38,301 nucleotides of DNA from Palleronia aestuarii (GTDB lineage Bacteria > Pseudomonadota > Alphaproteobacteria > Rhodobacterales > Rhodobacteraceae). The position numbers and the translations under genes were made by a program. Shown one piece after another: positions 34,479 to 38,301 of the stretch (positions within the stretch are counted from its first letter, which is position 1; the number at the start of each line of letters is the position of its first letter). Location: positions 1 to 38,301 of the forward strand of contig NZ_QKZL01000028.1 in assembly GCF_003253995.1 (NCBI RefSeq), given 5' to 3'. A model generated the notes under the pieces. It was given only the letters and a program-made list of their open reading frames with translations, made no database searches and had not been told where the DNA came from.

Positions 34479-34582
34479 GACCGCTCCCCTTTCGCGACTT
34501 TCCCCGGGTTTAGGGCGCACCACGTGGGGGGACAAGTGCCTAAGCCCGTTCGCGCGCCCCGCGACGGGCATCACGGGGGGCG

Positions 34583-34611
34583 TTGACACCCCCCGGACGA
34601 GCGGATAAGTC
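34583..34611 (+). promoter_or_regulatory. Probable sigma-70 promoter of tRNA-Leu
   Basis: TTGACA (34583-34588) is a perfect -35 box; GATAAG/TAAGTC at 34604-34611 is a modest -10 with 15-17 bp spacing. Transcription would start around 34617, about 12 nt ahead of the tRNA. Confidence 0.5.
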
Positions 34612-34628
34612 GCGGCTTCACGTGACCT

Positions 34629-34714
34629 GCCCAGGTGGCGGAATGGTAGACGCGCCAGCTTCAGGTGCTGGTGTCCGTATGGACGTGGAGGTTCGAGTCC
34701 TCTCCTGGGCACCA
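34629..34714 (+). tRNA. tRNA-Leu (anticodon CAG)
   Basis: An 86-nt class II tRNA with encoded CCA (34712-34714). The acceptor is GCCCAGG/CCTGGGC; the anticodon stem CCAGC/GCTGG holds the loop TTCAGGT, giving CAG; a long variable arm 'tgtccgtatggacg' is typical of tRNA-Leu; the T arm is 'gaggttcgagtcctc'. The integrase element starts directly after its 3' end, so the tRNA end is the likely attachment site. Confidence 0.97.
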
Positions 34715-34849
34715 TCCCTTTCCGTGATGGCGTGACGTTCTTCCATTGTTTTACCTTTGGCCTCTGTTTGTGCTGGTCGGAGGAAGGTCACGGCAAGTCC
34801 GCGACCCAGTTATTGTCCATGCCGCTACGACGCGATTACGATCCTCGGC

Positions 34850-35878
34850 ATGGCCACATTCAGAAAAACGAAGTTCGGTTGGCAGGCTCAGGTGGCCCGC
34901 AAGGTCGGTGGTGAAACCGTCCGCAAGGCCCAGACCTTTAAAAGCAAGCGAGAGGCCCAAGTATGGGCTCAGGAGTTCGAGGTCGGGCTGTCCAGCGGAA
35001 CGACTAGCAACGATTCCCTTGCCAGCGTATTCGACCGTTACGCCCGTGAACGGTCCAGGGGAAAGAAGGGCGAGCGATGGGAGGTCATCCGCCTTGCCCG
35101 ATTCAAGCGCGACATTGCGAACGGGAGGCCCCTGGGGAATTACACTATCGGTGAGATTTCCCGTGCCGATCTCGTCGCATGGCGTGATACCCGGCTTGGG
35201 GAGGTCCAGCCCGCCAGCGTCAAGCGGGAGATGAACCTCCTGAAGCATGTCTTCGTCACGGCCGTTGACGAGTGGGAGCTTATCCCGACCAATCCGATGG
35301 CAAAAGTGAAGCGCCCTCCCAGCGGCAGGAGACGTAAGCGCCGCGTCCTGCCCGACGAGATCGAGAAAGTAAGCGCCGCTCTCGACCTCGGGTCCGAACC
35401 GTGGGTCAGCGAGAAGCAGATCACGGGAGCGGCTTTCCTCTTCGCCATCGAGACGGCTATGCGATCGGGCGAGATCCTCAACATGAGAAACCGTGACATA
35501 ACCGGGAGCGTCGTCCGCCCGCCAGAGACGAAGAACGAACACGCCCGCCACGTCCCGATGACTGTCCGGGCTGTCGAGATACTCAACAAGGTTCGGAACG
35601 GGATCGAGGATGCGGACGCCCACCCTTTCGCGATCGACAGCGACAGCTGCGACAGCCGTTTCCGGCTGGCGGTGGTGAAGGCCAAGGTCGATGACCTTCA
35701 TTTCCACGACTCGCGACACGAAGGTATCACCCGCCTCGCGAAGCGCCTGGAAATTTTGGATCTTGCGCGAGTGACGGGGCATAGGAACCTGAATGAGTTG
35801 CTGACGTACTACGAGGCTTCCGGCGACGAATTGGCAGAACGGCTCAACGCTTCGACTTCCAGTGATGAAATCAAATAG
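34850..35878 (+). CDS. int: Tyrosine-type site-specific integrase
   Basis: A 342-residue tyrosine recombinase that would insert and excise the element at the tRNA-Leu 3' end. Residues 1-~55 form an Arm-DNA-binding, AP2-like region ('TFRKTKFGWQAQVARKVGGETVRKAQTFKSKREAQVWA'). The core-binding domain runs to ~165 ('NYTIGEISRADLVAWRDTRLGEVQPASVKREMNLLKHVFVTAVDEWELI'). The catalytic residues are the Arg of 'IETAMRSGEIL', His-x-x-Arg of 'LHFHDSRHEGITRLAK', the His of 'VTGHRNLNE' and the nucleophile Tyr in 'LLTYYEASG'. The Met at 34850 is chosen because the domain starts there; the open frame upstream reads into sequence beside the tRNA. Its last 70 bp overlap the end of the convergent HTH gene. Confidence 0.94.
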   Translation: MATFRKTKFGWQAQVARKVGGETVRKAQTFKSKREAQVWAQEFEVGLSSGTTSNDSLASVFDRYARERSRGKKGERWEVIRLARFKRDIANGRPLGNYTIGEISRADLVAWRDTRLGEVQPASVKREMNLLKHVFVTAVDEWELIPTNPMAKVKRPPSGRRRKRRVLPDEIEKVSAALDLGSEPWVSEKQITGAAFLFAIETAMRSGEILNMRNRDITGSVVRPPETKNEHARHVPMTVRAVEILNKVRNGIEDADAHPFAIDSDSCDSRFRLAVVKAKVDDLHFHDSRHEGITRLAKRLEILDLARVTGHRNLNELLTYYEASGDELAERLNASTSSDEIK

Positions 35879-36084
35879 GGACAACCGTTGCCGCCGCTGA
35901 CGCGATTAAACCGGCCGTCCTTGATCCATGCTCGGATCGTTCTTTCGCTTTTGCCAAGGCGCTCAGCAACGTTCGGAACTGGCAACCATGCTTCTGGCTT
36001 TTTTGTCGTCTGCATCGCCTCTCGCACCGCCTCGACAACGAGGGAACGCAGCTCGTCGGGGGAAACGACGATCACGGCGGCCAT
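35809..36084 (-). CDS. Excisionase-like helix-turn-helix protein
   Basis: A 91-residue protein with a MerR/AlpA-type HTH ('WLPVPNVAERLGKSERTIRAWIKDGRFNRVSGGNGCPYLISSLEVEALSRS', residues ~33-83) of the kind seen in excisionases and in element regulators. The N-terminal part ('VVSPDELRSLVVEAVREAMQTTKK') is a short helix, probably for dimer contacts. The ATG at 36084 overlaps the stop of the upstream gene by one base (TAATG), showing translational coupling. Its position next to int, tail to tail with a 70-bp overlap, supports a role in directing excision, but this is inference. Confidence 0.8.
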   Translation of the reverse strand: MAAVIVVSPDELRSLVVEAVREAMQTTKKPEAWLPVPNVAERLGKSERTIRAWIKDGRFNRVSGGNGCPYLISSLEVEALSRSANSSPEAS

Positions 36085-36623
36085 TAGTCGTCTCTCTCTT
36101 CTGCATAAGCCTCGATCAAGATCGCCTGAGGATTCAAGTTTAGCGCAGCGCAAGCCCGACCGAACATTTGCAACAAGTCGATGATTATGAATGCCTCAGG
36201 CTGCCCCAGTTCGGCCCGGACTGCGGTAATGGGATCAGCGCCAATTTTATGGCAAACGACATTAGACCTGTTTCCCGCTGCAATAAGCAGGGTACCGCCA
36301 TGGGAGGTCTCATACGGCATGGCTATCGCCCTTTGTGGGGCTCGGGTTCGCGCTTGCGGATTATTGTGTCCGAACTTCATGCCTGCGGCGAACGCCAAAC
36401 CAAGGTCCGAGACCCCGGCACGAACAAGTGCTGCGGCAGCACAAATTTCCATTACGTTGTACCATGAGAAGCGGCGATGCTTCCCGCGTTCGCCGCCCCC
36501 TTCGATTGTTTTGTGACCGACGATCACGTTCCGCTTAAGCCAGTTTTGCAGCGTGGACATACTGATGTCGGCAGCCGCGATCACTTCCCTAGCGGTAAAC
36601 ATGCGATGGTAAATTGACATCAT
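36084..36623 (-). CDS. MerR-like HTH regulator of the element
   Basis: A 179-residue protein. Its N-terminus resembles a MerR-type winged HTH: 'MFTAREVIAAADISMSTLQNWLKRNVIVGHKT' (residues ~8-39), then 'KHRRFSWYNVMEICAAAALVRAGVSDLGLAFAAGMKFG' as the wing and following helices. Residues ~100-179 ('MPYETSHGGTLLIAAGNRSNVVCHKIGADPITAVRAELGQPEAFIIIDLLQMFGRACAALNL') are not a known effector domain to me. AGGATC, 7 nt before the ATG at 36623, is the ribosome binding site; a strong inverted repeat stands immediately before it and may control expression. It is followed by the excisionase-like gene. Confidence 0.75.
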   Translation of the reverse strand: MMSIYHRMFTAREVIAAADISMSTLQNWLKRNVIVGHKTIEGGGERGKHRRFSWYNVMEICAAAALVRAGVSDLGLAFAAGMKFGHNNPQARTRAPQRAIAMPYETSHGGTLLIAAGNRSNVVCHKIGADPITAVRAELGQPEAFIIIDLLQMFGRACAALNLNPQAILIEAYAEERDD

Positions 36624-36627
36624 GCGA

Positions 36628-36687
36628 CGATCCTAAAGGTCTCATGACCTTCTAACAGGATCGCAGGTAGAAGGTCAAGAGACCTTT
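36628..36687 (-). promoter_or_regulatory. Nested palindromes / leader hairpin with loop-to-SD complementarity
   Basis: A 20-bp inverted repeat with one mismatch (arms 36635-36654 and 36668-36687) surrounds a 13-nt loop. Each arm is itself a palindrome, AAGGTC-N4-GACCTT, at 36636-36651 and 36671-36686, with centres 35 bp apart. On the minus strand the loop contains CGATCCT (36657-36663), an exact complement of AGGATCG (36628-36634), which is the Shine-Dalgarno region of the MerR-like gene. The structure overlaps the stop codon of the upstream gene (36675-36677). It may be a pair of operators, an RNA pseudoknot switch, or both. Confidence 0.8.
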
Positions 36688-36878
36688 TGTGTTCGCCCTC
36701 GCTTATTCTCGTCCAGCGCGTCGATGACCGGCCCCATCAGTTCGGCGGCCAGTGCCAGAACCTCCGTTGTGCCCTTCCAGTCCAGACCTGAAGTTTCGTT
36801 CTCTTCGGCAAGCATCATGCAGCGGATAAGCGCGGAGACCTGGTAAGCTCGACGCTCAGGATCGATGTCGGAATTCAT
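36675..36878 (-). CDS. Small hypothetical element protein (67 aa)
   Basis: A 67-residue acidic, mostly helical protein ('AYQVSALIRCMMLAEENETSGLDWKGTTEVLALAAELMGPVIDALDENKRG'). I recognise no family. GGAGGG lies 7-8 nt before the ATG at 36878, and the start overlaps the stop of the gene upstream (ATGA, 36875-36878), so the pair is coupled. Its stop codon lies inside the inverted repeat that precedes the MerR-like gene, so translation to the end could disturb that hairpin. Confidence 0.65.
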   Translation of the reverse strand: MNSDIDPERRAYQVSALIRCMMLAEENETSGLDWKGTTEVLALAAELMGPVIDALDENKRGRTQKVS

Positions 36879-37099
36879 GCCGCGCCCTCCACGCGGTCAA
36901 GGCTGTTGGCAAGCTTGTTCGCGAGATCGAGAGCTACCACCGTCACCGACGCAATGGCGTTGCCATAGGCCGGGTTCATCTCACTTCCCATGAGGTCGAG
37001 AGCCTCAAGGCATCCGGCTAACTGCACGGCGTCATTCTGGCAGTCTTTGAGCGAAGGGCGAGCGCGGGCGTTCCCCGCTAAGGGGTGATGATCGGTCAT
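36875..37099 (-). CDS. Small hypothetical element protein (74 aa)
   Basis: A 74-residue, mostly helical protein ('LKDCQNDAVQLAGCLEALDLMGSEMNPAYGNAIASVTVVALDLANKLANSLDRVEGAA') of unknown function. AGGAGAA is well placed before the ATG at 37099. It has the same size and general helical layout as the next gene, though I cannot claim homology. It is the first gene of the minus-strand element operon (74 aa, 67 aa, MerR-like, excisionase-like), divergent from the XRE pair across a 79-bp promoter region. Confidence 0.65.
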   Translation of the reverse strand: MTDHHPLAGNARARPSLKDCQNDAVQLAGCLEALDLMGSEMNPAYGNAIASVTVVALDLANKLANSLDRVEGAA

Positions 37100-37127
37100 T
37101 GCCGAGTTCTCCTGGCTGGGTTAATTG

Positions 37128-37140
37128 TAGAAAATATCTA
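37128..37140. promoter_or_regulatory. Small dyad in the divergent element promoter
   Basis: TAGA-N5-TCTA at 37128-37140 in an AT-rich 79-bp gap between the minus-strand operon and the XRE genes. The position suits an operator for one of the flanking HTH proteins; the dyad itself is short. Confidence 0.3.
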
Positions 37141-37178
37141 ACTCCGCGCCGAATGCGAAGCAAGAGGAAAACTACAAC

Positions 37179-37403
37179 ATGACGCCGCAACAGTGTAAGG
37201 CCGCCCGGGCGATGCTTGGGCTATCGCAAGATGGGCTCGCGAAAAGGTCCGGGGTAGCGGTTTCTAGCATCATCCCATTTGAGAAGGGACAGCGCGCACC
37301 ACGAAACGCAACACTTGCCGCCATCCGCACGGCCCTCGAAGCTGCAGGCGTCGAGTTCATCGAGGAGAATGGCGGTGGCGCCGGGGTGAGGTTGCGGCGA
37401 TGA
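37179..37403 (+). CDS. XRE-family HTH mini-protein A
   Basis: A 74-residue Cro/C1-type helix-turn-helix protein: 'MTPQQCKAARAMLGLSQDGLAKRSGVAVSSIIPFEKGQRAPRNATLAAIRTALEAAGVEFIEENGGGAGVRLRR', read here in pieces, has the recognition helix around 'SSIIPFEKGQ'. The domain covers nearly the whole protein, as in phage Cro-like repressors. AGGAAAA lies just before the ATG at 37179. The stop overlaps the start of the next gene (ATGATGTCC region, start at 37400). It shares the ending 'AIRTALEAAGVEFIEEN' with that gene, so they are paralogues. Likely the lysogeny-type control gene of the element. Confidence 0.85.
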   Translation: MTPQQCKAARAMLGLSQDGLAKRSGVAVSSIIPFEKGQRAPRNATLAAIRTALEAAGVEFIEENGGGAGVRLRR

Positions 37404-37615
37404 TGTCCTTTGCAGCGCAGCTCCGGATGGCCCGCGCTGGACTCGGCTGGTCGCAGGCGCGGGTTGCGGAAACTGCCGGTATTCCTCTTCCCATGTATCA
37501 GGCAATCGAAGAAGGCCGGGATGCCGGTGCCGTACCTGCTTTGGTGCCGATACGAGCGACGCTCGAAGCCGCTGGGGTGGAGTTCATCGAGGGGAACGTG
37601 GCGGACCAGGGGTAA
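37400..37615 (+). CDS. XRE-like HTH mini-protein B
   Basis: A 71-residue paralogue of the preceding protein: 'AQLRMARAGLGWSQARVAETAGIPLP' aligns with 'KAARAMLGLSQDGLAKRSGVAVS', and 'IRATLEAAGVEFIEGN' is nearly identical to the matching part of protein A. The start overlaps the previous stop by 4 bp, so it is translated with it. The recognition-helix positions ('LPMYQAIEEGRDAG') differ clearly, which suggests a different DNA target, or a partner that forms heterodimers. The middle segment 'AVPALVPIR' departs from the XRE pattern. Confidence 0.75.
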   Translation: MMSFAAQLRMARAGLGWSQARVAETAGIPLPMYQAIEEGRDAGAVPALVPIRATLEAAGVEFIEGNVADQG

Positions 37616-37973
37616 GACTGGTGTTTAGACGAACGTTTCGAAGGCGGTACGAGGCGTTAACTTATAAGCTGCGATCCCTGACGAAGAAACCTTGTCTTAT
37701 CAGATTATCAGGATAATATCTAAGGTGCCTGCTGTTGACCTGCTGAAGGCATAAGATCATGCGCGACACGGTGATAAATCTGCCGGCCGTAGCACTACTG
37801 AGGTCAGTAGGAGCGTTTTGTGGGGTTCATGGCAGGCCCCATCGCATGATCGCAGGCTTCATTGATGGACGCGTAGGAGTTGGTCCCTGGCCAAAAGACG
37901 TTTAGTTTGGCGACCGGCGGATCGATGAAACGTTCCGATGTAAATCCTTGACTTATCCTTAGTTGCCTTCAAC
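37616..37973. other. 358-bp stretch without a well-supported gene
   Basis: Low-GC sequence between the XRE pair and the IS end. It holds a short imperfect dyad near 37696-37715 (GATTATC-AG-GATAAT) that may be a weak terminator or operator, and one 48-codon ORF listed separately. No RNA gene or tRNA-end repeat (att site) was found. Confidence 0.5.
37759..37905 (+). CDS. Doubtful 48-aa ORF
   Basis: ATG at 37759 opens 48 codons ('MRDTVINLPAVALLRSVG...GVGPWPKDV') ending at TAG 37903-37905. A GAAGG lies about 11 nt upstream, further than ideal. No homology is recognised and the composition is unremarkable. Listed only because it is the longest plus-strand frame with any ribosome binding site in this stretch. 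Confidence 0.2.
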   Translation: MRDTVINLPAVALLRSVGAFCGVHGRPHRMIAGFIDGRVGVGPWPKDV

Positions 37974-38301
37974 GGGCCTTGTTGCGCAAATCTCCTGACG
38001 GAGGGACTTCCCCTTTCTTCGTTTGAGGTCAGCCGACGGGCTGCGTGACGGGGATGCCGAGGGCGGTGAAGCGGTTGAGGATGGCGATGCGAACTTGGAG
38101 TTCGGCGGTCTGGCGGTCGAAGTCGCGGGACATGAGCTTCTGACCGAGGAGCTTCATGCAGTTCATCTTGGTCTCGACGCGGCTTCGACGGTGGTAGCCG
38201 GACCACCTTCTCCAGAGCGTCCGACCGAAGCGTTTGATGGCGCGCAGGGCCTCGTTTCTCGCACCTGCCCCCGGGCTGTCTTTCTTCCATGGTTTGGCGT
38301 T
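37974..38301. mobile_element. IS5-family insertion sequence, 3' part
   Basis: From 37974 the sequence GGGCCTTGTTGCGCAAATC looks like the terminal inverted repeat of many IS5-family elements. The transposase reads toward it on the minus strand and stops 55 bp inside. The other end and the target duplication are outside the window. The IS appears to sit within or at the edge of the tRNA-Leu element. Confidence 0.75.
38029..38301 (-). CDS. IS5-family transposase, C-terminal part (cut by window edge)
   Basis: The minus strand from the last base encodes 90 residues with no start in the window: 'NAKPWKKDSPGAGARNEALR...' then 'FGRTLWRRWSGYHRRSRVETKMNCMKLLGQKLMSRDFDRQTAELQVRIAILNRF' and a TGA at 38029-38031. 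'WSGYHRRSRVETKMN' contains the conserved Tyr-x2-Arg-x3-Glu-x6-Lys signature with the final Glu of the DDE catalytic triad, as in IS4/IS5-type transposases. The N-terminal part with the two Asp lies beyond 38301. No frameshift is seen in the visible part. Confidence 0.9.
   Translation of the reverse strand, partial: NAKPWKKDSPGAGARNEALRAIKRFGRTLWRRWSGYHRRSRVETKMNCMKLLGQKLMSRDFDRQTAELQVRIAILNRFTALGIPVTQPVG

What the first reader, a model, noticed from the sequence alone, without database searches (positions are those of the whole stretch)
36628..36687. Nested palindromes with a potential SD-sequestering pseudoknot before a MerR-like gene
A 20-bp inverted repeat (19 pairs) consists of two identical smaller palindromes AAGGTC-N4-GACCTT. 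On the transcript the loop carries CGATCCT, a perfect 7-nt complement of the AGGATCG containing the ribosome binding site. The hairpin also contains the stop codon of the upstream gene, so ribosomes finishing that gene would open it. One site could thus combine a DNA operator (two spaced palindromes) with translational coupling through an RNA pseudoknot.
Basis: partly seen in the sequence, partly recalled or inferred. Interest (0 to 1): 0.8.

Follow-up and report, generated by a model that had tools for sequence, protein, structure and literature searches.

The report
Repressor-type operator repeats over regulator's promoter
A striking inverted repeat in front of a small regulatory gene of a phage-like element is most likely a pair of DNA docking sites laid over that gene's own promoter, so that the protein can switch itself off; this is an ordinary design, not a new RNA switch.

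Summary
The repeat is real: arms 36635-36654 and 36668-36687, 19 of 20 pairs. It outscores every other inverted repeat in the window and the best in each of 12 simulated windows. The loop/SD complement and the upstream stop codon inside one arm are also real.

Best reading: a DNA operator. The arms cover a promoter-like pair reading toward the MerR-like gene (TTGACC, 18 nt, TAGAAG), so its own transcript would lack the first arm and the loop. Among nine homologous regulators, window included, 4 have a strong inverted repeat before the gene (7 of 499 control gene starts) and 5 have TTGAC at the promoter position (18 of 499). The repeats differ in sequence. Four of the nine show no significant long repeat. 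Both tests were framed after seeing the pattern.

The pseudoknot is not supported: zero nucleotides would have to cross a 20-bp stem, and loop/SD pairing is only 3-4 nt in the five other repeat-bearing loci. The predicted protein fold is closest to CvkR, a MerR-type repressor of a transposon. Binding by this protein is inferred, not shown. Interest is low to moderate.

The parts
36671..36686 (-). palindrome O1, AAGGTC-tctt-GACCTT, over the -35 hexamer; within arm 36668-36687
   Evidence: only two exact copies in the genome
36636..36651 (-). palindrome O2, AAGGTC-atga-GACCTT, over the end of the -10 hexamer and the likely transcription start; within arm 36635-36654
36673..36678 (-). -35-like hexamer TTGACC, 55 nt before the start codon
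   Evidence: TTGAC at -70..-48 in 5 of 9 homologues against 18 of 499 controls
36649..36654 (-). -10-like hexamer TAGAAG (18-nt spacer); last base not T, as in the majority of alphaproteobacterial sigma-70 promoters analysed in PMC8407463
   Evidence: PMC8407463 passages. The strict scan, which demands that T, found no promoter in 35800-37700
36657..36663 (-). loop segment CGATCCT, complementary to AGGATCG
   Evidence: no comparable match in five other repeat-bearing loci
36628..36634 (-). AGGATCG with the Shine-Dalgarno-like AGGA, 7 nt before ATG
36084..36623 (-). P0001, 179 aa, MerR-type winged-helix regulator; likely ligand of O1/O2 (inferred)
35809..36084 (-). P0002 excisionase-like protein (ATG at 36084, overlapping the P0001 stop as TAATG)
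36675..36878 (-). P0003, 67 aa, no Pfam or PHROG match at E 0.1; its stop codon lies in the first repeat arm
36875..37099 (-). P0004, 74 aa, no significant family match (best PHROG E 0.093)
34757..35878 (+). tyrosine integrase (TTG 34757 or ATG 34841 as start), convergent with the P0001-P0002 genes
34629..34714 (+). tRNA-Leu(cag), likely attachment site (inferred from position)

Best explanation
The repeat is a bipartite DNA operator lying over the promoter of the P0001-P0002 (MerR-like regulator and excisionase-like) genes of a prophage-like element. One palindrome covers the -35 hexamer and the other covers the end of the -10 hexamer and the start region. The MerR-like protein most likely binds both sites as dimers and represses its own transcription, and so the level of excisionase. 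Shown: the repeats, their overlap with promoter-like hexamers, and recurrence of repeats of other sequence at the same place in part of the homologues. Inferred: that the promoter is active, that P0001 (not P0002 or the HTH protein at 37179) is the ligand, and that the effect is repression.
For: (1) TTGACC-18-TAGAAG overlaps the two palindromes at -55/-31 from the ATG. TTGAC at -70..-48 occurs in 5 of 9 homologues and 18 of 499 control gene starts (Fisher p 1.4e-5). The majority of alphaproteobacterial sigma-70 promoters analysed in PMC8407463 lack the last T of the -10 (passages). (2) Inverted repeats of net score 11 or more lie within -90..+10 of the start codon in 4 of 9 family members (window, L006, L011, L012) and 7 of 499 control gene starts (p 1.4e-5); L028 has a weaker repeat (score 9, p 0.0133) and two short palindromes. 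The repeat sequences differ between members. (3) In the window, L011 and L047 the first arm lies on or between the -35-like and -10-like hexamers, so it would not be in a transcript from that promoter. (4) The only mismatch of the 20-nt repeat is the base that makes TTGACC in one arm and ATGACC in the other. (5) The P0001 model's best PDB match is CvkR (7xn2, Foldseek E 7.7e-5), a dimeric MerR-type repressor with a palindromic site (PMC9938897, abstract and passages). (6) GGTC/GACC is over-represented in -75..-1 of the window (p 0.001), L005 (0.005) and L020 (0.0095), not in the other six. (7) No AAGGTC/GACCTT in 37100-37178, the divergent promoter region of the HTH gene.
Against: Four of 9 homologues (L004, L005, L013, L020) have no significant long inverted repeat (p 0.35-0.96), only short dyads or promoter-like hexamers. 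A tenth, more distant full-length homologue that I left out of the nine (L021) has no repeat passing the cut at its gene start. No promoter with a -35 of at least 4 of 6 matches stands at the usual place in L012, and in L006 the best one lies closer to the gene (-34). GGTC sharing does not follow HTH similarity well: L011 is as close to the window protein as L020 (44% in the HTH region) but lacks GGTC; L013 is 50% identical to L005 there and lacks it. The tests were framed. The repeat is longer than two palindromes need (7 of 8 flanking and centre positions also match in inverted order), which a hairpin would also explain. The strict promoter scan found nothing. Model confidence is moderate (pLDDT 72). 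No binding or expression data.
Confidence: 0.72

Rival explanations
1. Same operator, different ligand: the excisionase-like P0002, the HTH protein at 37179 or 37400, or a host factor binds the palindromes.
For: P0002 has an HTH_17-like domain too (E 6.1e-6, 26.8 bits against a cut-off of 27). [quoted passage not shown]
Against: The divergent promoter region of the 37179 gene has no such site.
Confidence: 0.15
2. RNA switch on read-through transcripts: the 20-bp hairpin and a nested hairpin (CGAUCCU/AGGAUCG enclosing the second palindrome) are exclusive, and translation of P0003 decides which forms and so whether the SD is free.
For: 81-nt leader -32.7 kcal/mol, z -5.7; without the first arm the leader folds into the SD-hiding nested hairpin, -19.7, z -3.3. 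Loop/SD match p 0.0022.
Against: In the five other repeat-bearing loci the loop matches the last 16 nt before the ATG by 3-4 nt. In L011, L012, L006 and L047 at most 6 nt separate the second arm from the ATG, so an SD there lies in or by the arm and the layout differs. Transcripts from the internal promoter would lack the loop. The upstream stop codon is inside the repeat region in 2 of 6 such loci. Rfam gives only the tRNA in 34500-38301.
Confidence: 0.08
3. The first reader's pseudoknot, with the loop pairing to the SD while the long stem stays formed.
For: Seven complementary nucleotides.
Against: Zero nucleotides join the 3' end of the 20-bp stem to the SD strand. Keeping 12 stem positions gives -12.9 plus -9.1 for the second stem before any pseudoknot penalty, against -28.2 for the plain hairpin. 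No pseudoknot program was run. Loop/SD match not seen in five other loci.
Confidence: 0.02
4. A mobile palindromic element or other repeat that landed here by chance.
For: The two copies are near-identical over 20 nt in inverted order.
Against: No other exact copy of the palindrome in the genome held; some homologous genes have repeats of other sequence at the same place.
Confidence: 0.03

Closest known systems
CvkR (Alr3614), MerR-type repressor of type V-K CRISPR-associated transposons (PMC9938897; abstract, outline and passages seen)
   Same: Best structural match of P0001, also in the sequence-profile list (E 0.0064, second after 8vd6 at 1.5e-5, a CAP repeat matched over 28 residues with no stretch passing alone); dimeric repressor on a palindromic site in promoters of a mobile element
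   Different: Cyanobacterial; site AnnACATnATGTnnT; represses cas12k and tnsB; the passages seen show no pair of 20-nt inverted operators before its own gene
RdfS, winged-helix excisionase of ICEMlSym-R7A (PMC11963761; passages seen)
   Same: HTH_17-type protein of an alphaproteobacterial mobile element that binds and negatively autoregulates its own promoter
   Different: It is the excisionase itself, oligomerises, and showed no consensus motif; in the window the excisionase-like gene is the next one, P0002
HspR of Helicobacter pylori (PMC6102357; passages seen)
   Same: MerR-family repressor binding an inverted repeat (HAIR-like) that overlaps its own promoter, with cooperative dimers proposed
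   Different: Heat-shock regulator; one central HAIR-like motif with flanking sites that are not conserved
Stl of SaPIbov1 (PMC4936726; passages seen)
   Same: Mobile-element repressor with inverted-repeat sites overlapping predicted promoters before stl, str and xis
   Different: Different protein; 6-bp half-sites spaced by 5 bp, one site assigned to each gene

Membership tests
MerR-family regulator (P0001) | N-terminal MerR-type winged helix | tested here: met
   Foldseek: CvkR E 7.7e-5, the only match with E up to 0.001; CarH, GlnR, CueR follow at E 0.06-0.1; PHROG MerR-like E 0.0047. Pfam HTH_17 E 0.024 is below its cut-off
MerR-family regulator (P0001) | dimerisation through the C-terminal region | not testable with these tools
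   monomer model only
Autoregulatory operator over own promoter | symmetric sites overlapping -35 and -10 of the regulator's gene | tested here: met
   by sequence; the -10 is weak by the E. coli consensus
Autoregulatory operator over own promoter | layout kept in homologues | tested here: inconclusive
   significant repeat in 5 of 9 (p at most 0.0133), not in 4 of 9
Autoregulatory operator over own promoter | binding and repression by the gene product | not testable with these tools
   needs EMSA and reporter assay
H-type pseudoknot that hides the SD | linker long enough to cross stem 1 | tested here: not met
   0 nt for 20 bp
H-type pseudoknot that hides the SD | loop/SD pairing kept in relatives | tested here: not met
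   loop against last 16 nt before ATG: 3-4 nt in L006, L011, L012, L028, L047; 7 in the window

The most novel reading that the evidence does not exclude
The site works on two levels. As DNA it is the autoregulatory operator; on read-through mRNA from the P0004-P0003 genes the 20-bp hairpin keeps the SD free, while ribosomes terminating at the P0003 stop codon inside the hairpin let the nested, SD-hiding hairpin form. Upstream translation would then turn the regulator and excisionase down.
Probability: 0.07. Interest if true: 0.6.

Novelty: new member of a known kind. Interest (0 to 1): 0.25.

Why it matters
It marks the likely control point of the regulator-excisionase genes in a small family of prophage-like elements of Rhodobacterales. 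It also points to a regulator family in which operator sequence changes fast while its place tends to stay, which could be used to work out its DNA-recognition code.

Tried and rejected
Pseudoknot: rejected on geometry, energy and lack of a comparable match in relatives. Genome-wide palindrome family: rejected (exact matches only). Rfam: only the tRNA in 34500-38301. Close homologues of P0001: none by its own peptides in IMG/VR or genome contigs, none by tblastn in the phage and plasmid records, none in IMG/VR with the L020 and L011 proteins. Whole-genome searches gave remote homologues: 6 of 295 and 8 of 390 genomes with P0001, 11 of 394, 11 of 390 and 2 of 385 with alignments, own genome counted each time, genomes partly the same between searches. 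A DNA search in 14 genomes of the genus gave, besides itself, one 24-bp hit, which was not counted.

Rows left out of the nine-member family: L007, L008, L014, L015 (weak single-protein hits, in L008 and L014 with stops inside), L021-L026, L055 and L106-L110 (weak or N-terminal profile hits; L021 is full-length but remote, and one search set it aside from the controls too). Of these I read the gene start of six (L021, L022, L024, L025, L026, L055): one (L022) had a repeat passing the cut. In one search, 7 of 12 loci were read on the wrong side of the gene; re-read five of these, not L007 and L008. The first control count (508 gene starts) still held family members; one search used 7 of 504 and 18 of 508; one search removed 9 family-like starts, leaving 499, and these cleaner numbers are the ones reported.

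Full report
What is there. On the minus strand, genes P0004 (37099-36875), P0003 (36878-36675), P0001 (36623-36084) and P0002 (from ATG 36084 to 35809) run toward a convergent integrase (34757-35878) that starts just after tRNA-Leu 34629-34714. Between P0003 and P0001 lies the inverted repeat: arms 36635-36654 and 36668-36687, 20 nt, one mismatch, 13-nt loop. It has the highest score of any repeat in the window and exceeds the best of each of 12 simulated windows. Its half-site pair AAGGTC-N4-GACCTT has no other exact copy in the 4.54 Mb held of the genome.

What it covers. Read toward P0001, TTGACC lies at -55 and TAGAAG at -31 with an 18-nt spacer. The first palindrome covers the former; the second covers the end of the latter and the likely start of transcription (inferred, about 7 nt on). 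The strict scan found no promoter in 35800-37700; it requires T as the last base of the -10, which the majority of alphaproteobacterial promoters analysed in PMC8407463 lack (passages seen). The single mismatch of the repeat is the base that gives TTGACC in one arm and ATGACC in the other.

Relatives. P0001 has no close homologue in IMG/VR, genome contigs, or the phage and plasmid records as searched. Remote homologues came from whole genomes of the same family and, for L028, from loci with a related integrase (the closest, 89%, is Tropicimonas, Rhodobacterales). Nine in all, window included, form the set tested (the other eight are 24-38% identical to the window protein). Inverted repeats at about the same place are significant in the window, L006, L011, L012 and L028 (p 0.0033-0.0133), not in L004, L005, L013 and L020 (p 0.35-0.96). 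Of 499 control gene starts in the same loci, 7 reach the score of 11 that 4 of 9 members reach. One of those seven, L047, is a different regulator in an element with a related integrase; its repeat also lies over a TTGACA promoter-like pair. Of five such elements with other regulators (L029, L030, L047, L055, L057), only L047 reaches 11. TTGAC lies at -70..-48 in 5 of 9 members and 18 of 499 controls. These tests were set up after the pattern had been seen.

The RNA reading. The leader with both arms is stable (-32.7 kcal/mol, z -5.7), and without the first arm it can hide the SD in a plain nested hairpin (-19.7, z -3.3). A pseudoknot with the full stem is excluded because nothing links the stem's 3' end to the SD strand, and partial opening costs too much (no pseudoknot program was run). 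The loop/SD match is unlikely by chance in the window (0.22% of 5000 shuffles), but in L006, L011, L012, L028 and L047 the loop matches the last 16 nt before the ATG by only 3-4 nt. In four of these five at most 6 nt lie between the second arm and the ATG, so the layout is not the same as in the window. Since the promoter-like pair lies inside the repeat, its own transcript would not contain the hairpin. A switch on read-through transcripts stays possible and is given as the novel case.

The protein. The AlphaFold model of P0001 (pLDDT 72, three sequences) matches CvkR, a MerR-type repressor of CRISPR-associated transposons, better than anything else in the PDB by Foldseek (E 7.7e-5; next 0.062). 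CvkR is a dimer on a palindromic site (PMC9938897, abstract and passages). HspR (PMC6102357, passages) and RdfS (PMC11963761, passages) are known cases of MerR-type or HTH_17-type proteins binding at their own promoter.

Verdict. Most likely an autoregulatory operator over the promoter of a regulator-excisionase pair, a known kind of arrangement. Of the two interpretations, the DNA operator is supported and the pseudoknot is not.

Noticed in passing
35684-35698: AAGGTC-GAT-GACCTT inside the integrase gene, a near copy of the palindrome with a 3-nt centre; it encodes the integrase residues KVDDL, which the L012 integrase also has while its DNA there is not the palindrome (L027), so probably a coding coincidence.
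   Followed up: partly
34700-38301: 11 of the window's 36 AAGGTC/GACCTT hexamers fall in this 3.6-kb stretch; 4 are O1/O2, one lies at 34784, between the tRNA and ATG 34841 of the integrase.
   Followed up: no
L029:7908-8972, L054-L057: Loci with a related integrase (68-89% identity) include IMG/VR contigs of 6.5-13.5 kb; L029 encodes a phage portal protein (Pfam PF04860). The regulators next to the excisionase in L029, L047, L055 and L057 differ from one another and have no Pfam match above cut-off.
   Followed up: partly
L022, start of the distant HTH_17-like gene: 17-nt repeat with 2 mismatches, TTGACAGTGTGTCTGAG/CTCAGACATCCTGTCAA, starting at a TTGACA just before the gene; a second, distant clade with a similar layout in this member, while L024 and L025 did not pass the cut.
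   Followed up: partly
38029-38301: A DDE_Tnp_1-like transposase fragment (E 0.00019, just below its cut-off) runs off the contig end, so the rest of the element is not seen.
   Followed up: no
37179-37403 and 37400-37615: Two small HTH genes in tandem overlapping by 4 nt, divergent from P0004; the first has a counterpart with EFIEENGGGAGVRLRK in L011.
   Followed up: no
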